Of a stretch of 20,028 bases of DNA, positions 707-17,000 are shown one piece after another. The translations under genes were made by a program, and so were the position numbers. How positions within the stretch are numbered: the stretch's first letter is position 1; each line of letters starts with the position of its first letter. The stretch is from a virus: the IMG/VR virus record IMGVR_UViG_3300025508_000207, positions 1 to 20,028 of that record; one strand, written 5' to 3'. The notes under the pieces were generated by a model, which was not told the DNA's origin, ran no database searches, and saw only the letters and a program-made list of their open reading frames with translations.

Positions 707-3025
707 ATGTTACAATTTCAGGGATTTAAACCAGACGCATTAAATCGCATGGCTAAGACTATGGGATACTCAGGAGACATGGGGGAGTTTAATAAATTTC
801 TGAATGAGAACCCTGAGAAACAAGAGATGATGGATGTGTACTCTGAAAAAGCTAAAGAGATGATGATGGGTGGCTATGTAAAAGGCTATGCTGAAGGTGG
901 GATGGTAACTCCATCTCCGGGGATGGAAAATATTCCGGGTACACTTAGTTATGAACAAGCACTTAATAGACAAATGTCAAGAGATGTTAAAGATACTTGG
1001 GAAGCAAAAAGAATAGCAGCAGCCCTAGCGTTAGGTCCGGGTACTAGATATACTATACCTCCTGAAAATATGGCAGAACAGCAACAAGCACAAGCTGCAC
1101 AGATGCAGATGGCCCAAGCCAATCCCTTACGTCAAATGGCACAATTAGCACCACTTGGACTAGCAGCACCCACAGTTCTACCTAGAGACTATGTACCCAA
1201 TCCTAGTGCAGAGAAATTTGGACAACGAGCAGCACAAACTACAGGACAAACAGCCAACCCACAAGCAACAGCACCCGTATCACCAGTAGACTACACACAG
1301 GGGCCAGTGCCTCAGTCAACTGGGTATCAGGGTGGTACTATAACTGAAGCAATAGCTAACAGAGCATTTACTCCGGGCCTACCTTTTGGTGGTACTGTAT
1401 CACCAGTTGGTACAGCATACAATGCTAACCAAGCAGTAGATACTACACTTGGTCAGGTATCAGGAACGATTGCTCCAAGCATAGCAGGTGCAACAACCTC
1501 AACAGCAGCAGCACCAACAGTGGTTGATCCACGTACAATGACTGCATCTACTGCAGCATCAGGAGTGCAAGCAGCAACAGGTGCAATGGCTCCTGCACAG
1601 GGTACAGTAGATCCACGCGCACAAGCTACAGCTCAACAAACAACAGAGACAAGTGTAGAAGCTTTAACTGAAGCACAGGGTACAGCCACTACAATGGTTA
1701 ATCCTGTTACACGTACTATACAGGCAGGTGAAGTTGTAAGTGGTGCAGCAAATGCTGAGACAGCAGCAACCTTTATGGAACAGGTGGAAGCTGCAGAGGC
1801 AACACCAACTAACAAAGCTACAGTACAAGGACAGTTAGAAGGATTGATGGCAGCCTTTGAAGGTGGTAATACACCTGCATGGGCAGCAGGGGCAATGCGT
1901 AACGTCACTACACAGATGGCAAACAGAGGTTTAGGTGCATCAAGTATGGCAGCACAGGCTCTTATACAAGGGGCTATGGAATCTGCACTACCAATAGCAC
2001 AAGCAGATGCACAAGTAATTGCACAATTTGAAGCACAGAACTTGTCAAACAGACAACAACGTGCTATGCTTGCAGCACAACAACGTGCTACATTTATGGG
2101 CATGGAGTTTGACCAAGAGTTTCAATCACGAGTACAAAACTCTGCACGTATAGGTGACATAGCTAATATGAACTTTACTGCTGACCAACAGGTTGCACTA
2201 GAGAATAGTCGTATAGCTAACACAGTTAATCTATCTAACCTAAGTAATAGACAAGCAATGATAATGGCAGAGGCTTCTGCACTAGCAAACCTTGACATGT
2301 CTAATCTTGCTAATAGGCAACAAGCTGCTGTACAAAATGCACAGAACTTTATGCAGATGGATATGCAAAATTTATCTAATCAACAACAGACTGATATGTT
2401 TAAAGGTCAACAAATTATTCAATCTTTATTTACAGATCAAGCTGCTGAGAATGCAGCAAAACAATTTAATGCTACTAGTCAATCACAGACTGATCAGTTC
2501 TTTGCAAGCCTAGCAAGTACAACTTCGCAGTTTAATGCTTCACAAGCCAATGCTCAAGGACAGTTTAATGCAGGGCAAACTAATACTATGAATAAATTTG
2601 TTGCAGAAGTACAGAATCAACGTGACCAGTTTAATGCTCAGAATAGATTAGTTATAGACCAGAACAATGCACAGTGGCGTAGGGAAATTGCAACAGCAGA
2701 TACCGTAGCAATCAATAGAGCCAATGAGTTAAACGCTAGTTCTATACTGGAGATGTCTGACTCTGCATATAAAAACCTATGGCAGTACTACTCAGATAGT
2801 ATGGAGTGGGCATGGAACAGTGCAGAGAATGAGCAAGAGCGTTGGAACAGACTAGCACTACAGCAAATGCAGAACGATACTAGTATAAAACTAGCAGATA
2901 TGAAGAGTGATTATCAATCCTCTACATCGTTTGGTAAATTAATTGGTACACTATTTACTGGTGGTAATAAAATATTTGGCAGCTTGACTGGTGGTACTAG
3001 CTCATTAGATTCTGTAATATCATAA
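707..3025 (+). CDS. Probable internal virion protein, Q/A/N-rich with long 11/22-residue helical repeats
   Basis: The 772-residue protein begins with a Met-rich helical region and a glycine motif (GGYVKGYAEGGMV, about 55-67) of a kind seen in marine phage virion proteins. A low-complexity Ala/Thr/Gln/Pro region follows (about 120-390). Residues 445-576 form six 22-residue units, each with Leu or Phe at the second position and usually Asn/Asp and Gln after it. Residues 586-677 carry a QFNA-type motif every 11 residues. Such spacing predicts a long helical rod. The C-terminus is hydrophobic and glycine-rich (about 741-766). There is no catalytic motif. Size, position before two further large proteins, and composition suggest an ejected core protein playing a T7 gp14/gp15-like role. 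The family is not recognised with certainty. ATG at 707 follows AGGGATAAAAGA. Confidence 0.8.
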   Translation: MLQFQGFKPDALNRMAKTMGYSGDMGEFNKFLNENPEKQEMMDVYSEKAKEMMMGGYVKGYAEGGMVTPSPGMENIPGTLSYEQALNRQMSRDVKDTWEAKRIAAALALGPGTRYTIPPENMAEQQQAQAAQMQMAQANPLRQMAQLAPLGLAAPTVLPRDYVPNPSAEKFGQRAAQTTGQTANPQATAPVSPVDYTQGPVPQSTGYQGGTITEAIANRAFTPGLPFGGTVSPVGTAYNANQAVDTTLGQVSGTIAPSIAGATTSTAAAPTVVDPRTMTASTAASGVQAATGAMAPAQGTVDPRAQATAQQTTETSVEALTEAQGTATTMVNPVTRTIQAGEVVSGAANAETAATFMEQVEAAEATPTNKATVQGQLEGLMAAFEGGNTPAWAAGAMRNVTTQMANRGLGASSMAAQALIQGAMESALPIAQADAQVIAQFEAQNLSNRQQRAMLAAQQRATFMGMEFDQEFQSRVQNSARIGDIANMNFTADQQVALENSRIANTVNLSNLSNRQAMIMAEASALANLDMSNLANRQQAAVQNAQNFMQMDMQNLSNQQQTDMFKGQQIIQSLFTDQAAENAAKQFNATSQSQTDQFFASLASTTSQFNASQANAQGQFNAGQTNTMNKFVAEVQNQRDQFNAQNRLVIDQNNAQWRREIATADTVAINRANELNASSILEMSDSAYKNLWQYYSDSMEWAWNSAENEQERWNRLALQQMQNDTSIKLADMKSDYQSSTSFGKLIGTLFTGGNKIFGSLTGGTSSLDSVIS
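2039..2737 (+). repeat. In-frame 66-bp / 33-bp repeat region encoding 22- and 11-residue helical repeats
   Basis: Codons for residues 445, 467, 489, 511, 533 and 555 of the 772-residue protein each open a 22-residue unit (66 bp). The clearest copies start NLSNRQQ, NLSNRQ, NLANRQQ and NLSNQQQ; the second and third (467, 489) are diverged. After a small phase shift, Phe occurs at 587, 598, 609, 620, 631 and 642, exactly 11 residues apart, mostly inside QFNA. Weaker copies follow at 652-655 and 674-677. DNA identity between copies is partial, so this is an old protein-level repeat rather than a fresh tandem duplication. Confidence 0.8.
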
Positions 3026-3035
3026 GGAAAATAAA

Positions 3036-3239
3036 ATGTACGATGAGGCATACAAAGTCTACCAAGGTATTATAAAGAAATTACCTGATGAAAGTAAAGA
3101 CAAACCAAAGCAAATATCTAGTGGTTTGCTAGGAAGACCTACAGTAAAAAAAGAAAGTGTATCTACAGAACCAGTAGATCGTATCGCACGATATGTTGCA
3201 AGCATACGTAGAGACAGAAGAGAGTTAAACAATGGCTGA
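3036..3239 (+). CDS. Small hypothetical virion-operon protein, 67 aa
   Basis: This short basic, mostly helical protein has no membrane segment. It starts at an ATG preceded by AAGGAAAATAAA, a reasonable ribosome-binding site. It carries a GLLGRP motif in the middle that loosely echoes the GGLMSRR tail of the next protein. Its last 8 bases overlap the start of the next gene, which points to coupled translation. The product is not recognised. Position among virion genes suggests a small particle component or assembly helper. Confidence 0.75.
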   Translation: MYDEAYKVYQGIIKKLPDESKDKPKQISSGLLGRPTVKKESVSTEPVDRIARYVASIRRDRRELNNG

Positions 3240-3744
3240 ACCACAAGCACTACCCTTTGATGCACCTATAGCAGGTATGTCATTAACGGCAGAGCCGGGC
3301 AATAGACCTTGGCAACAACCACCACAACATGATACCGTCGAACAGGCTATAGAATATTACCTACCCAAGTTAAGTGACGAAGAGTTCTATGAACAACTAT
3401 TAAATGTCATGGAGATGGGGATACCTATTACTACTATAGCAAATGGTATACAACTAAATGGAGTGATGACAGGTATACATACTATAGATGTAGGTATATT
3501 AATCATGCCTGTGTTAGTAGAGACTATGGCTTACATGGCTGACGAGGCAGGAGTTGATTATGATTTAGGTACAGAGAACAGAGTAGATTCTGATTTAGTA
3601 TCTGATAGCCAGTTAGCTTTAGTAATCAAAAAGATAAAAGATAAACAGGGTATAGAATCAGAGATGCCAGTACAAGAAGAGATGGCCCCAGAGCCAGTGG
3701 AAGAACCAGTTGAATCTGGTGGGCTAATGTCGAGGAGAATGTAA
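3232..3744 (+). CDS. Hypothetical virion-operon protein with one hydrophobic segment, 170 aa
   Basis: The protein has a Pro/Gln-rich N-terminus, a folded-looking middle (about 34-75), and a hydrophobic stretch at about 83-103 (GILIMPVLVETMAYMA flanked by Ile/Val residues) that could be a membrane helix or a buried core helix. An acidic Glu/Pro linker follows (about 143-162), and the end is basic: GGLMSRRM. No enzyme motif is seen. The start overlaps the previous stop by 8 bases and the stop overlaps the next ATG by one base (TAATG), so all three are likely translated together. I believe proteins of this kind are conserved in marine podoviruses, but I cannot give a function. Confidence 0.78.
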   Translation: MAEPQALPFDAPIAGMSLTAEPGNRPWQQPPQHDTVEQAIEYYLPKLSDEEFYEQLLNVMEMGIPITTIANGIQLNGVMTGIHTIDVGILIMPVLVETMAYMADEAGVDYDLGTENRVDSDLVSDSQLALVIKKIKDKQGIESEMPVQEEMAPEPVEEPVESGGLMSRRM

Positions 3745-4868
3745 TGGGTTTTAATATAGGTGGTTTTTTAGGTGGTGTTTCTGAGGGTGTTAATGATGCT
3801 ATCCTTCGTGAAGAAGAACGACTAGACGAAAAGTTAACGATGAATCGACAGGAAGCTAGTCTTCAACGTAGAGATAAAAATAAAGAAAGACTTAGAAAAG
3901 AAGTATTACTTGAAGAGTTAACTGAGCAGCTTGCCGTACACCATACAGAAGATCAAATTACACAGATGTCAGCTAAAGGTTTGGGTGCTATGAAACAGTT
4001 TGCAACTATAAGTCAGGCAGAGTTTGCAGCAGGGCGAGATCCTAGTGCTGCATATAACTGGAGTGTAGCTACTGCAGATCTTGCTCCACCACCTATGTCT
4101 TCACAGGTAGATAACTCAGCAAAGTCTGATGACCTTGAAAAAACAACTATTAAACCCACATCTTTTGGTCTTAAAAGACCAACACAAACATATAAATCAT
4201 ACGCTACAATAGACGAATCGTTAGAACGTAATGCTCAAGCAATAGTTACTGCACAACAAAATGGTGATAACAAAAAATTAGCAGAGTTACAAAGGCGTGG
4301 AGAACTTCTAATGGAACAGGCTCTAACACAAGGAGATGGTAGCCAGTTTAAAGATGCGTCAGTGACATCAGTATTAAACTATAGTTATAAAACATACATG
4401 ACTGGGCTAGGGTATGACTATGACAACGTAGAAAACAAAATAGCTAATCTAACAACAGATATGCGTGGTCAAGTTATTGCAGATAACTACGGTTATGGGC
4501 AGTCTTTGTTAAGAAATAAAAAATTTGCAGCAGATGGAACTATAAACTCTATTGCAACAAACCATAAGAACGATGCAAATATAAATGCGCGTGCATTTGC
4601 AGATAAACAGTATGTAAATAGAGGTGAAGGTTTGTACTTTCAACCTGCTCCCTCATCTAACTATCATGTAATACCTTTGCCGGGTGTCCAAGAAATGAAT
4701 AGAAAAGAACAAGGGGAATTTATGAAAAGTCAGTTTCAAAAATATAAACAGACTAACAAAGTATTACATGGTTCAACCGTAATATACCAAGGGGTAACTG
4801 CTGACGGTAAAAGTTACAAAGCAGCAGGTGGAGTTTACTCAAGAAATGGAGATAGGATAATTGGCTGA
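3744..4868 (+). CDS. Probable internal virion protein, 374 aa
   Basis: The N-terminus (GFNIGGFLGGVSEGVNDAI) is glycine-rich and amphipathic. It is followed by a strongly charged helix rich in Glu, Lys and Arg (about 20-66), then a mixed region with no visible catalytic motif. The C-terminal part (about 290-374) is more globular, with several aromatic residues. Its place between the repeat-rich protein and the 1243-residue protein matches the usual tandem of ejected core proteins in T7-like phages, so a gp15-like role inside the head or in the DNA ejection channel is a reasonable inference. Start and end both overlap neighbours (1 base and 8 bases), showing tight translational coupling. Confidence 0.75.
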   Translation: MGFNIGGFLGGVSEGVNDAILREEERLDEKLTMNRQEASLQRRDKNKERLRKEVLLEELTEQLAVHHTEDQITQMSAKGLGAMKQFATISQAEFAAGRDPSAAYNWSVATADLAPPPMSSQVDNSAKSDDLEKTTIKPTSFGLKRPTQTYKSYATIDESLERNAQAIVTAQQNGDNKKLAELQRRGELLMEQALTQGDGSQFKDASVTSVLNYSYKTYMTGLGYDYDNVENKIANLTTDMRGQVIADNYGYGQSLLRNKKFAADGTINSIATNHKNDANINARAFADKQYVNRGEGLYFQPAPSSNYHVIPLPGVQEMNRKEQGEFMKSQFQKYKQTNKVLHGSTVIYQGVTADGKSYKAAGGVYSRNGDRIIG

Positions 4869-7800
4869 TAGTTTACAAGATTTATTAAGTGAGGACAACT
4901 CAGAAGATACGTCTAGTATAAGACCTATTACTAATGTAGATAACACCTCTGAGGTAGAAGATGATTCTGATGAAATAGAATTAGAACTTGATTTTAAATC
5001 AGAAGGTTTTTTAGATGTTCCTGAATCTGTTGAGCCACCATTAACTGATCCTGAGTCTATAATAGATAGGACTACAGAGAGCGAGATGGATGAGAGTACA
5101 CAATTTAGCCGTGGTATAGGAAACTTAATGTCTGCAGGTCGTGACATAGGAGAGTTTATTACGAGTGGAGAAATTGTAACTGCACCTGCTCAAGGTATTG
5201 TTCGTGGATTAGAAGAGGTAACTGAGTTTGGTAAATCTGTAGTAACAGGTGGTACTAAAGGTGTTGCTAAAGGAATTGACTGGGTGTTTGATGAGACTGA
5301 TATTGATGATAAAATTATGTCAGGTATTTTAACAGCACAAGATGTAGCTTTTTCTCCTTTGATAGGACGTGGAGATGAAGAAGGTGGTGGTCTTCTTGGT
5401 GCTGTGGAAGAGTTTATACCTGACCCTGAAAGCGTAACAGGTGTATTGACTGCAGGTATTAGTCAGTTTGCTACAGGTATGATACTTACACGTAGAGTAA
5501 CAGGACTTAGTGGGCTAAAAGGAAATGTAATTAATGGTGCTATAACAGATGCTACATTCTTTGACCCATTTGAGGGTAACATTTCTACACTAGCCAAGTC
5601 ATCAGGTGGTGTATTTAATAATGCTATAACAGATGCTCTTGCAACAAATGAAACACAGGGTGAATTTGTTAATAGAATTAGAAACGGTATTGAGGGTCTT
5701 GCATTTGGTGGTGTAATAGAAGTATTTGGTAAAGCATTTAGAGCAGCAAAGGCTACAAAGAATGCTAAAGAAGAGTTTATAAAAACAGGTGAGGTGTCTA
5801 TTCCTGCAAGAAAAGAAATGGATGATGCTATTGACGACTTAAAAAACCTAGACCTTGAAGGGTCTCCTAAAAAAGAAGACATTAAAAAAGCTTATGATAA
5901 ACGTAAAGGTAAGTACGATATTGAACGAGCAAAAGCTAATACAAAAATAGAAGCTAACGAACAAAAAATTAAAGCTAAAGCAGTTGCATCAGATAACAGA
6001 GAAGTATCTAAAGATTTTATTGAGGAATTTGAAGAGCGACTAGGAAAACAAATATCAACACGTGACGCAGATGGTAATGTAACAGGATTAGATTTTGATT
6101 TAGCTAGAAAAGTAGGTAAGGAAACTACTGAAAGTTTATATGGGTCTAAGACCAGAGCATTTCTTGACAACGTAGTAGGTGTTAAAACAATAGCTGATGT
6201 GGATGTAGCTAAAGGAGTTGATGAAACATTTAGTGTTATATTAAATCCTGATAAACTAGATGCCATAGTAGCAGTTGCTAGTGATCTAAAAAAACAATTC
6301 CCAGATGCATTTAAACCAAAGGTAAACCCTGCCACAAATAAACAGCTACGGGTTATAGATCATTTGTTTGAACTAACTGTTAGTGGAGAGTTAAAAAGCG
6401 ATAAACTAATAGACACTTTAGGAACGTACGGTCTAACTTATGAAGATTATATAGTAAGTGTTATGGGTTCTGGATCTGATGCTGGAAGATTATTAAATAA
6501 ACTGAGCCAGTTGGGAAGAGCTAGACCTAAGAGCGAAGCAGAAGAACTTGCCAACAGATCTTTAATGGATGCACAAAATGGTATACGTCAATGGGTAATG
6601 CGTATTGAAAATATTAGAAGAGGTTCATTGGTTTCACAGTTAGCTACAGCAGCTAGGAACGTAACCTCTGTAGCCATACGTATGCCTCTTGAAAGTCTTG
6701 GCAATGTAATGGACACAGCCCTGTACTCATTAGGTAAAGAAGGCTGGGGTGCAGCAGGAAAGTCAATGCTTAATAGGCAAAACTGGGTAGGTTCTTTTAA
6801 AGGTATGGGGCATTTTTCATCTTTAAACACTGGTGGTTTGTATCGTAAGAACAGAGAATTTACTGACATGATACTGGAGCAACCAGAGTTCTCCGTACAG
6901 TATGACAAAATGTTTAATCAGTTAAATGAAATAAGAAAGCACACTAAAGGACCAACAGGTGGTGTGCTTGACAAAGTAGCTACACAACTAGAAAGAGGTG
7001 TAGATGTTTTAAACACACCTAACAGACTGCAAGAGTTTATGGTTAGAAGGGTTAGTTTTTTAAGTGAACTTGAAAGATTAGTTAAACGAGAGTGGAATGT
7101 AGATCTTATAGATACAGTAGGTAATGGAGATCTTCGTAAGCTTACCTCTGACATGAGCCAGTTTAGACCTAAAGGTGCAAGATCATTTATAGAATTAGTA
7201 GACTCATCTGTAGGTAAAGCATTAGACGTAACATACGCCAAACAACCAGACTTAAAAATATTTAGAGATGCTACAAACTTTATAACTCGTAATGGTCTTA
7301 CAACTATCATACCTTTTCCACGGTTTATGTTTAATAGTATTGAGTTAGTTGCCACCTACGCAGGTGGTGCATCAATACCACTAACCCGTAAGTTACTAGA
7401 CATGGGTAAGAAAGGTAAGAGTGCAGCATTAAATGAAGTCGAGCGTAAACTTGTAACACGAAATGTTATGGGCCTTGCAGGTATAATGGCAGCCTACCAA
7501 TACAGATCAGAGATTGGATCTATGGAATTAGGTGACGAATTAAGAGAGCAAGTTGAAGGTGATTATAAACTACTAGCCTTTGGTGATAAACGAGTTGATG
7601 TAACACCTCAGTTTCCCATGCGTCAGTATATGTGGGCAGGTGAAGCAGTAAGAAGAATAGCTAACGGTACATTCTCAGATTGGTATGACCACAGAGAGGC
7701 TATGCAAACCTTCATGGGTACTAACGTAAGAGTTGGCACAGGTAATGTAATCTTTAATGATCTTGCAGAAATTATATCAAGTGACGATGCAGTAGCAGGG

Positions 7801-8592
7801 GAAAGAGTTAAAACAGGTTTTGCAAAAGCAGTAGGTAACTATCTATCTACCTTTGCTACACCAATAGCACAGATAGTAGAGGCACAACGAGCAGCAGGTA
7901 TGAGAACTATGGACTATGCAGATGCTGCACAAGATCCTACACTTAATACTAGAGACAATTATTTCAGTGAGTTTTCCAGACCATTTAGAGCAAGAGGTTT
8001 CTCTAATCTATTTACCCCAGACTCTGAAGGAACACTGCCACCACGTGAGTTTTTATTCTCACAAGATAAACAAAGACCTAATCCTCTGGTCAAAGGAATA
8101 TTTGGAATAAATATGTTTGAAAAGGATGAGGATTATGGTCAGTTCTTTAAACAGCTAGGATACACAGAGTGGAAACTAGGTAGTAGATCTAAGATACCTA
8201 CACAAAAAAGAAACGAGAACCAGATTATAAGAACTATACTACCTGCAGTTGCAAACTTAGGTAGGGCATTACAAGCAGAGTATGAATCAGAGTATGATAT
8301 TCTTGTAAATAGAGGTCAGGAGACTGGTGGTCTATCAAAAGACAAGTGGGTATCAAGTAAACTTAAAGTCACACTTGACAAACAATTAACAAAAGCAAAG
8401 AGTTTAGCAGGTCAAGTTGGTGAGAAAGATGTAAGTAGAGAATCACTAGCACATGACTCGTGGCGAAAAATTCCTAAGAATGCACGATCATCAGCTATGA
8501 CTAGGTTTTTAGAAATAAAAAATAGAGACCCAGAGCTGACAGATCTTAAAGATATGGAGCTATTAATAGGCATAGCAAAAGCAGTTAGATAA
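4861..8592 (+). CDS. Large internal virion protein (T7 gp16-like role inferred), 1243 aa, TTG start
   Basis: This is the largest gene in the window. The protein begins with a very acidic segment (about 1-80). A Gly/Ala-rich region with several hydrophobic stretches follows (about 100-290), then a Lys/Glu-rich helical segment (about 290-390) and a long mixed region to the C-terminus. Its length is close to that of T7 gp16 (about 1300 residues), and it ends the virion operon as gp16 does. I see no lytic transglycosylase signature like the one at the gp16 N-terminus. The start is TTG: an in-frame TAA lies directly before it (4858-4860) and the first in-frame ATG is at residue 76. It overlaps the previous stop by 8 bases, within ATTGGCTGA, mirroring AATGGCTGA at 3231-3239. 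A terminator hairpin follows. Confidence 0.82.
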   Translation: MADSLQDLLSEDNSEDTSSIRPITNVDNTSEVEDDSDEIELELDFKSEGFLDVPESVEPPLTDPESIIDRTTESEMDESTQFSRGIGNLMSAGRDIGEFITSGEIVTAPAQGIVRGLEEVTEFGKSVVTGGTKGVAKGIDWVFDETDIDDKIMSGILTAQDVAFSPLIGRGDEEGGGLLGAVEEFIPDPESVTGVLTAGISQFATGMILTRRVTGLSGLKGNVINGAITDATFFDPFEGNISTLAKSSGGVFNNAITDALATNETQGEFVNRIRNGIEGLAFGGVIEVFGKAFRAAKATKNAKEEFIKTGEVSIPARKEMDDAIDDLKNLDLEGSPKKEDIKKAYDKRKGKYDIERAKANTKIEANEQKIKAKAVASDNREVSKDFIEEFEERLGKQISTRDADGNVTGLDFDLARKVGKETTESLYGSKTRAFLDNVVGVKTIADVDVAKGVDETFSVILNPDKLDAIVAVASDLKKQFPDAFKPKVNPATNKQLRVIDHLFELTVSGELKSDKLIDTLGTYGLTYEDYIVSVMGSGSDAGRLLNKLSQLGRARPKSEAEELANRSLMDAQNGIRQWVMRIENIRRGSLVSQLATAARNVTSVAIRMPLESLGNVMDTALYSLGKEGWGAAGKSMLNRQNWVGSFKGMGHFSSLNTGGLYRKNREFTDMILEQPEFSVQYDKMFNQLNEIRKHTKGPTGGVLDKVATQLERGVDVLNTPNRLQEFMVRRVSFLSELERLVKREWNVDLIDTVGNGDLRKLTSDMSQFRPKGARSFIELVDSSVGKALDVTYAKQPDLKIFRDATNFITRNGLTTIIPFPRFMFNSIELVATYAGGASIPLTRKLLDMGKKGKSAALNEVERKLVTRNVMGLAGIMAAYQYRSEIGSMELGDELREQVEGDYKLLAFGDKRVDVTPQFPMRQYMWAGEAVRRIANGTFSDWYDHREAMQTFMGTNVRVGTGNVIFNDLAEIISSDDAVAGERVKTGFAKAVGNYLSTFATPIAQIVEAQRAAGMRTMDYADAAQDPTLNTRDNYFSEFSRPFRARGFSNLFTPDSEGTLPPREFLFSQDKQRPNPLVKGIFGINMFEKDEDYGQFFKQLGYTEWKLGSRSKIPTQKRNENQIIRTILPAVANLGRALQAEYESEYDILVNRGQETGGLSKDKWVSSKLKVTLDKQLTKAKSLAGQVGEKDVSRESLAHDSWRKIPKNARSSAMTRFLEIKNRDPELTDLKDMELLIGIAKAVR

Positions 8593-14264: not shown

Positions 14265-16325
14265 TCACGCAACATCTTTTGTGTCAAGCCAGTTTGGTCC
14301 TATCTTTGCTTCTAATAATAATGGTACATTAAAGTCTATGTTCCACCTCTTATTAAAGATGTTAACGAGGTTGTCGTTAGTTAGTTTTATTATCTTTATT
14401 ACTCTATCCGTTTCGTCTGGGTGTATGTCAATTACTATACTATCATGTACAGTATTAACAACACAGCTTTGCATAGAGTTTGTCTCTAAAAGCTTGTCTA
14501 TGTATAGCATAGATATAGGTACGATGTCAGCAGTTGCAAAAGATTGAACAGGATAATTCTTTATCTGTGTGAAAAATGTCACACCACCGTTACGTCTACG
14601 TTGTACATCTGGGAATGCAAACTCCCTACCAGAGGGTATAGTTACCTTACCTGTAGTCAATACTTCTCGTGCTAGTTCCTTATGCCAACGTGCTATACCT
14701 GAGTACTTCTGAGTGAACTGTGCATAGTAAGCAGCTTCAGCTCTTGTTCTACCAAACCCACTCGCGCCATACAAGGGAGCAAAAGTATGTGCCTTTGCTT
14801 CTTGACGGGAGATCTTCTGTCCTGCGTCACTGATAACTTTAGCTGTATAACTATGTACATCAAAGCCTGTTGACACTTCTTGTATAGCTACCTCATCCTG
14901 ACTCAGGAATGCAGCGACCCTAAACTCTAGCTGTGCAAAGTCAGCTTCCATGATCTGCCCACCATCCCATCGTGATACAAACACTTTCTTTACAGGGAAT
15001 GTACCACCACGTGGCATGTTCTGCATGTTAGGTTCTGTACTAGATAGCCTACCTGTAGCTGTGGTACTCTGACGCAGCTTAACATGTAGCATACCATCAG
15101 CCTTAGTGTAGGTAGTTATACCTTCTACAAAACTAGACAGGTATGTATCCAATGCAGATAGTCTTCGTATCCTTTGTAAGAATAGTACAGTGTCACTATG
15201 TCCTTTGTCTCTGGCTACTGTCTCTAGCCTGACTAGATTATCCTTACCTGTACGAAACCCATTGGCACTAATCCAATCAGGGTTAGGTGCTGCGAACTTT
15301 AGACCTGCTACACTCGTGGTGTCAGTAAACCTATAGCCTACAGCACCACAGTCGAGACACTTAGTTGTCTTAACAAAGGGTGTACCATTCTTCTTAGTCT
15401 TACGTATCTGACCTGACCCTCTACAAGAAGGGCATTGCTTTGCCTTCTGCTTGTACAACATAGAGCAGTTGTTCTTGATAGTAGATCTGAACTCCTGATC
15501 TGTGGCACGTGGATCAAATGCATTAGCCCACATGGTTTTATCGTGTGGTTTACGACTGAATATAATCCACGACAATTGCTCTGGGCTATTGAGATTGATA
15601 GGTCTGTCACCCATAAGATGTTGCACTTGTCCTTCAAGCACAGATAGTAGCTCATTCTTCTCTGTCTCAAACTCCTTGCGTACTTCTTCTAGTACATCCA
15701 AGTCTACCTTAAAACCACGTTGGTATATACGTGTGAGGCAGTCAGCTATTCTATTACTTAGCTTCACTGTCTCCATTAGACCTGCATCTTCTCCAGTAAG
15801 CTTAGACTCTAGCTTATTGAACAGGTCCATTGTAGAATGTAAGTCAGCAGATAGGTACTCAGACAACTCATCGTGTGGTATTTCTCTGGTTGTATACCCT
15901 TTGTTGAAGTAGTCCTTTAGTGTACCCATCTTCTGTGTGTCACAGTTGTATCTCTCAGCCAAGTAACTAAGGCTAAGAGGTTCTTTCTGTCCACGTTGTA
16001 GTATGTAAGCACCAAGCATAGTATCAAACACCTCACCAGTATAAGTGAAGCCTGATTCCCATATCCATATAAGGTCATGGGCTGCATTGTGCATCACCAA
16101 GAGATGGGTATCATCTAGAATACTCTGGACAATACGACCACCCTCAGTGGTAGGTTGCTGTTCACTGTGATCAAACGTCACTATCTTTTCTTTAGAGCCT
16201 GACGGCCCTTGGCACAGCATACCTACCATAGTTAGTGTGTTCTCTGCCTCGAATGGGTCAAGCATCAGCTTACCATTACGCTTCAGAGTTGTGTTTTCTA
16301 CATCTAGTACTGTTACATGTCTCAT
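14265..16325 (-). CDS. polA: DNA polymerase, family A, with 3'-5' exonuclease and DnaJ-like cysteine insert
   Basis: The 686-residue replicative polymerase has an intact proofreading exonuclease: DVE (Asp8, Glu10), HNAAHD (His79 to Asp84) and YLSAD (Tyr157, Asp161). The polymerase part shows motif A ADFAQLEFR (Asp462), motif B RQEAKAHTFAPLYG (Arg507, Lys511, Phe515, Tyr519) and motif C VHDS (His627, Asp628). Phe515 corresponds to E. coli Pol I Phe762. Between the two domains, CPSCRGSG (Cys298, Cys301) and CLDCGAVG (Cys323, Cys326) form a DnaJ-central-domain-like zinc module, the hallmark of HMO-2011-type phages. The ATG overlaps the stop of the small upstream gene as ATGA. It is shorter than cellular Pol I and lacks the 5'-3' nuclease domain, as in T7. 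Confidence 0.96.
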   Translation of the reverse strand: MRHVTVLDVENTTLKRNGKLMLDPFEAENTLTMVGMLCQGPSGSKEKIVTFDHSEQQPTTEGGRIVQSILDDTHLLVMHNAAHDLIWIWESGFTYTGEVFDTMLGAYILQRGQKEPLSLSYLAERYNCDTQKMGTLKDYFNKGYTTREIPHDELSEYLSADLHSTMDLFNKLESKLTGEDAGLMETVKLSNRIADCLTRIYQRGFKVDLDVLEEVRKEFETEKNELLSVLEGQVQHLMGDRPINLNSPEQLSWIIFSRKPHDKTMWANAFDPRATDQEFRSTIKNNCSMLYKQKAKQCPSCRGSGQIRKTKKNGTPFVKTTKCLDCGAVGYRFTDTTSVAGLKFAAPNPDWISANGFRTGKDNLVRLETVARDKGHSDTVLFLQRIRRLSALDTYLSSFVEGITTYTKADGMLHVKLRQSTTATGRLSSTEPNMQNMPRGGTFPVKKVFVSRWDGGQIMEADFAQLEFRVAAFLSQDEVAIQEVSTGFDVHSYTAKVISDAGQKISRQEAKAHTFAPLYGASGFGRTRAEAAYYAQFTQKYSGIARWHKELAREVLTTGKVTIPSGREFAFPDVQRRRNGGVTFFTQIKNYPVQSFATADIVPISMLYIDKLLETNSMQSCVVNTVHDSIVIDIHPDETDRVIKIIKLTNDNLVNIFNKRWNIDFNVPLLLEAKIGPNWLDTKDVA

Positions 16326-16477
16326 TCTATTTCCTCTATCTTAGCTACAATATAGCTGTCAAGTATATCTAGTACCATTTGTGGGCCATGAGCAAAAAGA
16401 GTTATACTTTCTGTATCATGCTCTGCATTTATCTCATATTCCACGTAGTACTTAATCCTTGGTGGTTTGTGCATCAT
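16322..16477 (-). CDS. Small hypothetical protein upstream of DNA polymerase, 51 aa
   Basis: This short ORF fills the gap between the GIY-YIG gene and the polymerase. It starts at ATG 16477 inside the last codons of the GIY-YIG gene (26-base overlap), with a GGAG site 9 bases ahead, and its TGA overlaps the polymerase ATG as ATGA. The product begins MMHKPPRIKYYVEYEINAEH and ends in a helix rich in Ile, Val and Glu. No family is recognised. The ATGA junction and the ribosome-binding site support translation, and coupling suggests it may set polymerase expression. Confidence 0.75.
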   Translation of the reverse strand: MMHKPPRIKYYVEYEINAEHDTESITLFAHGPQMVLDILDSYIVAKIEEIE

Positions 16478-17000
16478 TTGTTTCCACTCCTTTTATCACA
16501 TTGATTGCATCTTGTACAGACATTTTAAACCACTCACCATTATCATACTTACTATGTTGCTGGGCTACCTGCTTAGCTATAATATGCACAGCCTTCTCTG
16601 CGTCTGCCCTACTGTCAAATCTACTTGACACATACTCTAAGATATAATCTCTATTAGGGCTATACGTTTGGTAATCATTGAATCTATTCTTACCATTGTG
16701 CGCTCTACCTATCTTCACCCTATCAGGCCAAGCTGGATTCGTAATTACGTATACTACTCCATCTGGTGGTCTTTTACTGGATGAAGTTTTCATACGACCA
16801 CTGGCTTGTGCTTTTTGTATTGCTTTGAGTACACCTGTATCATCAAGATCAGCTAGTGTTAGCCCCTCAGTTGATAGCATCTGCTTTAAGCTTCGCTTAG
16901 CCTTCTCATAGTTACGTTGATACTCTCTTTTATGGTCTGCATTATCTTTATAGTATGCTGTTTTACCTGTACGAGGATTTATTTCATTCGTATCTAACAT
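16452..17000 (-). CDS. GIY-YIG nuclease-like protein (T5orf172 / MUG113 type)
   Basis: The C-terminal domain (about 81-172) matches the T5orf172 branch of GIY-YIG nucleases: GVVYVI (GIY position, Tyr84), VKIGRA (YIG position, Lys96-Gly98), RF with Arg106, AEKAVH with a candidate catalytic Glu135 and His139, and GEWF (155-158). The first tyrosine-containing motif is VYV rather than GIY, as is common in this branch. The N-terminal part (about 10-75) is basic and helical and may bind DNA. It lies between helicase and polymerase genes. It could be a repair or host-DNA nuclease or a free-standing homing enzyme; its smooth fit into the operon argues mildly against recent homing. The start at 17000 has GGGAG 6 bases ahead. 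Confidence 0.82.
   Translation of the reverse strand: MLDTNEINPRTGKTAYYKDNADHKREYQRNYEKAKRSLKQMLSTEGLTLADLDDTGVLKAIQKAQASGRMKTSSSKRPPDGVVYVITNPAWPDRVKIGRAHNGKNRFNDYQTYSPNRDYILEYVSSRFDSRADAEKAVHIIAKQVAQQHSKYDNGEWFKMSVQDAINVIKGVETNDAQTTKD

What the first reader, a model, noticed from the sequence alone, without database searches (positions are those of the whole stretch)
2039..2737. Strict 22- and 11-residue repeat rod in the 772-residue virion protein
Six 22-residue units start at residues 445, 467, 489, 511, 533 and 555, and then Phe recurs every 11 residues at 587, 598, 609, 620, 631 and 642, mostly in QFNA. Eleven-residue periodicity is typical of hendecad helices that form slightly right-handed coiled coils or lie along membranes. 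In a podovirus core protein this suggests a long rod or tube that may span the periplasm during DNA ejection. I do not know of a description of this repeat in this phage group.
Basis: partly seen in the sequence, partly recalled or inferred. Interest (0 to 1): 0.6.

Follow-up and report, generated by a model that had tools for sequence, protein, structure and literature searches.

The report
Virus rod built in 11-residue steps
A protein of abundant ocean viruses with short tails holds a long helical rod whose length varies about sixfold between relatives, but always by exact multiples of 11 amino acids, which suggests a modular shaft or tube that helps deliver the viral DNA into bacteria.

Summary
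In the 772-residue protein (window 707-3025) self-comparison peaks at lags 11, 22, 33 and 44, and the six 22-residue units and six Phe lie where stated. The array is an alpha-helical hendecad rod: hydropathy period 3.665 (= 11/3), one proline in 54,740 rod residues, all-helical AlphaFold2 models. Between two fixed anchor domains the rod spans 148-863 residues in 26 different lengths, and all 404 ORFs measured (179 non-redundant) differ by whole multiples of 11, mostly 22. Flanking segments show no such rule. A tree needs at least 54 length changes, none out of register. The gene heads a conserved cassette of small, ~170-residue, ~370-930-residue and ~820-1,670-residue proteins, consistent with a podovirus ejection module. 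My best reading is an oligomeric amide-rich hendecad coiled coil or tube used in DNA delivery, like the phiX174 H tube and siphophage tape-measure repeats but with no detectable homology to either. Virion location, oligomeric state and a DNA-conducting lumen are inferred. A simple periplasm-spanning rod is weakened: long members would be 80-129 nm, and phages of one host strain carry different lengths.

The parts
707..3025 (+). gene of the 772-aa hendecad-rod protein
   Evidence: ORF; orthologues in HMO-2011-type phages and relatives
707..1813 (+). N-terminal part (residues 1-369): conserved head at about residues 1-65, then a low-complexity region of very variable length
   Evidence: alignment A1; indels of many sizes at residues 100-300; pLDDT mostly below 50 between 140 and 370
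1814..2038 (+). helical N-terminal anchor domain (residues 370-444), holding conserved P429
   Evidence: pLDDT 79-91; P at the anchor position in 386 of 404 ORFs
2039..2434 (+). N half of the rod: 22-residue units, residues 445-576
   Evidence: length changes are even numbers of hendecads in 307 of 320 ORFs
2435..2665 (+). C half of the rod: 11-residue Phe ladder, residues 577-653
   Evidence: predicted helix 578-680
2666..2926 (+). C-terminal anchor (residues 654-740): N-x-x-WR motif, fixed 30-residue spacing N654 to S684
   Evidence: spacing 30 in 320 of 320 ORFs and N654 in 394 of 404; pLDDT 80-87 around residues 710-740
2927..3022 (+). Gly-rich hydrophobic C-terminal tail (residues 741-772); in the CRP-3 clade followed by an S74-type intramolecular chaperone domain
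   Evidence: alignments; S74 in CRP-3 and 35 ORFs
3036..3239 (+). small cassette protein, 67 aa
   Evidence: ORF; a gene of similar size occupies this place in several relatives
3232..3744 (+). 170-aa cassette protein with PI-x-G-x-x-x-T ... PW-x-x-P motif
   Evidence: family found downstream of the rod in 280 of 282 loci with enough flank
3744..4868 (+). 374-aa cassette protein (370-930 aa in relatives)
   Evidence: synteny
4861..8592 (+). 1,243-aa large cassette protein, probable internal virion protein
   Evidence: weak match to phrog_6651 'internal virion protein', E = 2.6e-5; a large protein ends the cassette in relatives

Best explanation
The gene encodes the rod protein of the DNA-ejection (internal virion) cassette of HMO-2011-type and related podoviruses. 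Residues 431-684 form a proline-free alpha-helix with exact 11/3 periodicity. Several copies associate side by side, in parallel and in register, into a hendecad coiled coil or helical tube whose core and faces are unusually rich in Gln, Asn and Ala. The protein is stored in the virion and leaves with the cassette partners at infection to extend the very short tail as a shaft or conduit for DNA. Repeats are gained and lost only as whole hendecads, usually pairs, because any other change would break the helical register between the two anchor domains. Shown: repeats, helical period, whole-hendecad length rule, proline absence, cassette synteny. Inferred: presence in the virion, oligomer and its order, role in ejection, lumen.
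For: All 320 ORFs of the first set have an anchor distance of 225 + 11k residues. 84 of 84 ORFs fetched later agree, 23 of them non-redundant to the first set. 26 distinct lengths, 148-863 residues; controls upstream and downstream are spread over all residues mod 11. At least 54 length changes on a tree of the anchors. Hydropathy period 3.665 in both halves. One proline in 54,740 rod residues of 156 representatives. AlphaFold2: helices 513-569, 578-680, 685-751 and no strand. Gln + Asn about 30% and Ala 17% of the rod; seams b-f-j and d-h-a/k alternate hydrophobic and amide residues. Cassette conserved across all length classes. Long-rod genomes carry T7-like connector/portal and major head families and no Pfam tape-measure hit.
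Against: No virion proteomics for any member was found. PHROG gives no family for the window protein; phrog_6121 'virion structural protein' hits only the CRP-3 member, partly over its S74 domain. Profile comparison with SU10/phiEco32 DNA injection proteins finds nothing. No fold match in the PDB. The rod is modelled with low confidence (pLDDT 42-75; monomer only). Long members (533-863 residues, 80-129 nm if straight) exceed any periplasm, and one host strain is infected by phages with 159- and 214-residue rods. Gene position next to fibre genes also fits an external fibre.
Confidence: 0.6

Rival explanations
1. External trimeric fibre or tail-needle shaft: the rod is the coiled-coil stalk of a receptor-binding or membrane-piercing appendage.
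For: The gene follows tail-fibre genes in HMO-2011 and relatives. The CRP-3 clade carries a C-terminal S74 chaperone, a domain usual on trimeric fibres and spikes.
Against: The conserved partners are downstream: a ~170-aa protein and large proteins, one with a weak internal-virion match. S74 also sits on proteins annotated as DNA ejection proteins in phage 7-11 and relatives. No receptor-binding or beta-rich domain was detected.
Confidence: 0.2
2. Tape-measure or core-scaffold role: the rod sets the length of an internal core or of a tail tube during assembly rather than conducting DNA.
For: Siphophage tape-measure proteins have 11-residue aromatic-marked repeats, about 0.15 nm per residue (PMC5099701). 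Whole-repeat length changes fit.
Against: The named groups have short tails (PMC6918029, PMC9038755). Two long-rod genomes have podovirus-type connector genes, and five show no Pfam tape-measure hit.
Confidence: 0.1
3. Membrane-lying amphipathic helix, as in apolipoproteins or perilipins, coating a membrane during entry.
For: 11/22-residue tandem helices are typical of such proteins (general knowledge). The C half has one Phe/Ile/Val face.
Against: The N half has hydrophobic positions on two faces (b/j and h), with amides between; net charge is slightly negative (-2 per 100 residues) and the hydrophobic faces are mixed with Asn/Gln.
Confidence: 0.06
4. Neutral low-complexity array: lengths are quantised only because repeats duplicate, with no structural constraint.
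For: Duplication of units trivially gives multiples of the unit.
Against: No DNA-level repeats even in the longest array. Units have diverged strongly, yet no out-of-register indel among 404 ORFs and at least 54 changes, while adjacent segments take indels of any size. Proline is almost absent.
Confidence: 0.04

Closest known systems
phiX174 DNA pilot protein H (H-tube)
   Same: Hendecad helix segments, Gln/Asn-rich, thought to pipe DNA across the envelope; 18 of 23 lumen residues are Asn, Gln or Arg (PMC7354561).
   Different: H has three hendecads then heptads over 121 residues; here 13-78 hendecads. Unrelated microvirus; no sequence match in the PDB.
Siphophage tape-measure proteins with 11-residue aromatic repeats (TP901-1, p2)
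   Same: Helical, 11-residue repeats marked by Phe/Trp; whole repeats can be removed (PMC5099701).
   Different: TP901-1 mixes 11- and 18-residue spacings and has hydrophobic membrane segments; here a pure 11/22 register with fixed anchors in short-tailed phages.
T7 gp14/gp15/gp16 ejectosome
   Same: Assumed role: internal proteins ejected to build a trans-envelope conduit (PMC8954989).
   Different: T7 gp15 is a hexameric tunnel with no reported hendecad array; no detectable sequence or fold similarity.
phiEco32/SU10/7-11 DNA injection proteins
   Same: First of a run of ejection-type genes; the 7-11 type ends in an S74-like domain as the CRP-3 rod does; SU10 gp20-gp24 are in the virion (PMC4281155).
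   Different: No 11-residue periodicity in 7-11 gp20; profile comparison negative.

Membership tests
HMO-2011-type podovirus group | Orthologous structural and replication genes in the same order | tested here: met
   Rod protein 60% identical to HMO-2011; same cassette order, MazG and RNR genes nearby; family A DNA polymerase
Hendecad coiled coil | 11-residue repeat with 3.67 residues per turn, helical, no proline | tested here: met
Hendecad coiled coil | Oligomer with packed core | not testable with these tools
   No multimer prediction available; S74 domain in one clade only hints at a trimer
phiX174 H-type DNA pilot tube | Sequence or fold homology to H | tested here: not met
   No match in sequence search of the PDB or fold search
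phiX174 H-type DNA pilot tube | Lumen lined by Asn/Gln/Arg | tested here: inconclusive
   Amides dominate positions a, f, g (and j in the C half), but which face points to a lumen is unknown
Siphophage tape-measure protein | 11-residue aromatic repeats | tested here: met
   Phe ladder
Siphophage tape-measure protein | Recognised tape-measure domain; long tail | tested here: not met
   No Pfam or PHROG tape-measure match for rod proteins; none for PF10145 in five long-rod genomes; group described as short-tailed (PMC9038755)
T7-type ejectosome proteins gp14/15/16 | Sequence or profile similarity | tested here: not met
   No Pfam or PHROG family for the rod protein; only the 1,243-aa neighbour weakly matches phrog_6651
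T7-type ejectosome proteins gp14/15/16 | Packaged in the virion and ejected | not testable with these tools
   No virion proteomics for a member found
phiEco32/SU10 DNA injection protein family | Profile similarity | tested here: not met
   hhalign probability below 1%

The most novel reading that the evidence does not exclude
Short-tailed phages adjust a modular trans-envelope tube by adding or removing whole hendecad pairs between two fixed end pieces. The tube is a 'tape measure without a tail' whose length varies from about 22 to 129 nm and evolves under a strict register rule, giving conduits suited to different envelopes or surface layers.
Probability: 0.25. Interest if true: 0.8.

Novelty: new variant of a known kind. 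Interest (0 to 1): 0.6.

Why it matters
How short-tailed phages span the envelope is solved for very few model phages. Here is a large, abundant marine family in which the candidate conduit protein differs only in the number of identical-length steps. That gives a natural length series (148-863 residues) to test whether the rod length sets a conduit, core or tail dimension, and whether register or sequence matters. It also gives a likely role to a gene left as 'hypothetical protein' (once 'huntingtin') in all genomes looked at.

Tried and rejected
Pfam, PHROG and PDB sequence searches of the rod protein gave no family. Foldseek against the PDB gave nothing significant; against BFVD the significant hits look like relatives of this same family. 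Homology to SU10/phiEco32 DNA injection proteins was suggested by the shared S74 domain and a GSS-like motif and was rejected by profile comparison. Salmonella phage 7-11 gp20 has no 11-residue signal. A DNA tandem array was rejected. A pure heptad (3.5) period was rejected: power 0.5-0.6 against 1.8-2.7 at 3.667. In the window family alone the strongest hydropathy harmonic is 2.75 (11/4), which puzzled me until the two opposite seams b-f-j and d-h-a were seen. A fixed ruler for host periplasm is not supported. A genome-contig scan with alignment A4 failed because nothing was conserved enough; A2 was used instead and gave six loci, all in register. No held paper describes this repeat in these phages.

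Full report
What is there. The window is a 20,028-base virus record. Its gene order, class II ribonucleotide reductase, family A DNA polymerase and MazG-like gene place it in the HMO-2011-type podovirus group. The finding lies in ORF 707-3025, 772 residues, 60% identical to HMO-2011 phage1322_25, which is annotated only as a hypothetical protein.

The observation. DNA-level tandem repeats are absent from the rod, so the periodicity is held at the protein level.

Relatives. Five scans of viral contigs, one of genome contigs, and the phage collection supplied relatives from Roseobacter, SAR116, Pelagibacter, Rhizobium, Sinorhizobium, Aeromonas, Vibrio and Pseudoalteromonas phages. Among the 80 closest the rod (residues 445-680) has no indel at all (one locus ends before it), while residues 100-300 differ by gaps of many sizes. 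Between distant phages the rod length changes, and every change was a multiple of 11.

Length rule. I built two profile HMMs, one for the N-terminal anchor (W 370-448) and one for the C-terminal anchor (W 646-722), and measured the distance from P429 to N654, so that gaps inside the repeats could not influence the result. In 320 of 320 ORFs the distance was 225 + 11k. Loci fetched afterwards, as an out-of-sample test, gave 84 of 84, of which 23 were non-redundant to the first set. In all there are 26 lengths from 148 to 863 residues, in 179 non-redundant sequences. The anchors are real landmarks: P in 386 and N in 394 of 404, and the next spacing (N654-S684) is 30 in 320 of 320. As control, the stretch upstream of P429 and the tail after N654 are spread over all residues modulo 11 in the same 156 sequences. 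Parsimony on a quick tree of the anchors needs at least 54 changes of length; the short alignment makes this number rough, but 26 lengths alone need 25. Changes are even numbers of hendecads in 307 of 320 ORFs for the N half and 308 of 320 for the C half. Long classes step by 88 and 110 residues, suggesting duplication of four- and five-pair blocks, but no DNA repeat remains in the longest array.

Structure. Hydropathy averaged over 53 very divergent members peaks at 3.665 residues per turn in both halves, not 3.5 or 3.6. One proline occurs in 54,740 rod residues. AlphaFold2 with 52 close sequences predicts only helices from residue 348 on, including 578-680 and 685-751, with pLDDT 66-79 in residues 590-740 and pTM 0.24. 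With 74 diverse sequences the N anchor (pLDDT 79-91) and C anchor (up to 87) are well modelled, and the rod is helical with low confidence, as expected for a monomer of an oligomeric rod. On a hendecad wheel the N half has two opposite seams, b-f-j (Leu/Ala, Gln, Leu/Met) and d-h-a (Asn/Ala, Met/Ala/Val, Asn); the C half has one seam k-d-h (Phe, mixed, Ile/Val/Ala) and an opposite Ala/Asn/Gln face b-f-j. Two seams suit a helix with neighbours on both sides, as in a tube or multi-helix bundle; this is inference.

Surroundings. The downstream genes follow a fixed plan. In all relatives read in full a ~170-aa protein follows, usually after one or more small genes, then a 370-930-aa protein and a large protein of about 820-1,670 aa. 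The 170-aa family is found downstream in 280 of 282 rod loci with enough flank, in every length class. The 1,243-aa protein weakly matches an internal virion protein family. In the CRP-3 clade the rod protein ends in an S74 intramolecular chaperone domain (Pfam E = 6.7e-6; 35 ORFs), a domain otherwise known on trimeric fibres and also present on proteins annotated as DNA ejection proteins in phage 7-11 and its relatives. In SU10, of the same distant type, gp20-gp24 including the injection protein are virion proteins by mass spectrometry (PMC4281155), but no homology to the rod could be shown.

How it most likely works. I think the rod protein is packed in the head and ejected with its partners, and that its helices associate in register into a hendecad shaft or tube that prolongs the short tail. 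The closest working analogue is the phiX174 H tube, which has hendecad segments and a lumen of Asn, Gln and Arg (PMC7354561). The closest sequence style is the 11-residue aromatic repeats of some siphophage tape-measure proteins, where whole repeats can be deleted and length maps to 0.145-0.15 nm per residue (PMC5099701). In both cases this is 'works like', not membership: no homology was detected.

Limits. A plain periplasm-spanning rod is only partly compatible with the data: cultured members would measure 22-50 nm, but uncultured ones reach 129 nm, and strain FZCC0040 is infected by phages with 159- and 214-residue rods. The two long-rod genomes examined for structural genes have T7-like connector and major head genes, and none of five long-rod genomes has a PF10145 tape-measure hit, so the long rods do not simply mark long-tailed phages. 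Quantised length could arise from unit duplication alone; what argues for constraint is that no out-of-register change has survived in any of the sampled lineages although the units have diverged.

Noticed in passing
L345:3554-4003 (HTVC115P, directly after the rod gene): A gene annotated toxin-activating lysine-acyltransferase (HlyC-like) sits between the rod gene and the rest of the cassette; it might acylate an ejection protein.
   Followed up: no
L090, L202, L203 and 32 further rod ORFs: C-terminal S74-type intramolecular chaperone fused to the rod protein in one clade; the domain normally serves trimers.
   Followed up: partly
window 3232-3744: 170-aa family with conserved PI-x-G-x-x-x-T and PW-x-x-P motifs, nearly always downstream of the rod; no Pfam or PHROG match.
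   Followed up: partly
window 822-884: Imperfect 33-bp (11-codon) DNA repeat of 1.9 copies near the N terminus, outside the rod.
   Followed up: no
window 16452-17000 (-): 182-aa protein whose C half reads like a GIY-YIG/T5orf172-type domain (VYVITNPAWPDRVKIGRA); by eye only.
   Followed up: no
window 14265-16325 (-): Family A DNA polymerase with an inserted CxxCxGxG zinc motif (CPSCRGSG), the partial DnaJ domain reported for this group (PMC9038755).
   Followed up: no
L432:6918-10568 (G005): 1,217-aa protein between the portal and scaffold-like genes with a weak match to a PHROG tape-measure family (E = 2e-6).
   Followed up: no
L091:4360-6951 (ctYwJ313): The rod protein of this record is annotated 'huntingtin', evidently from its Gln richness.
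   Followed up: yes
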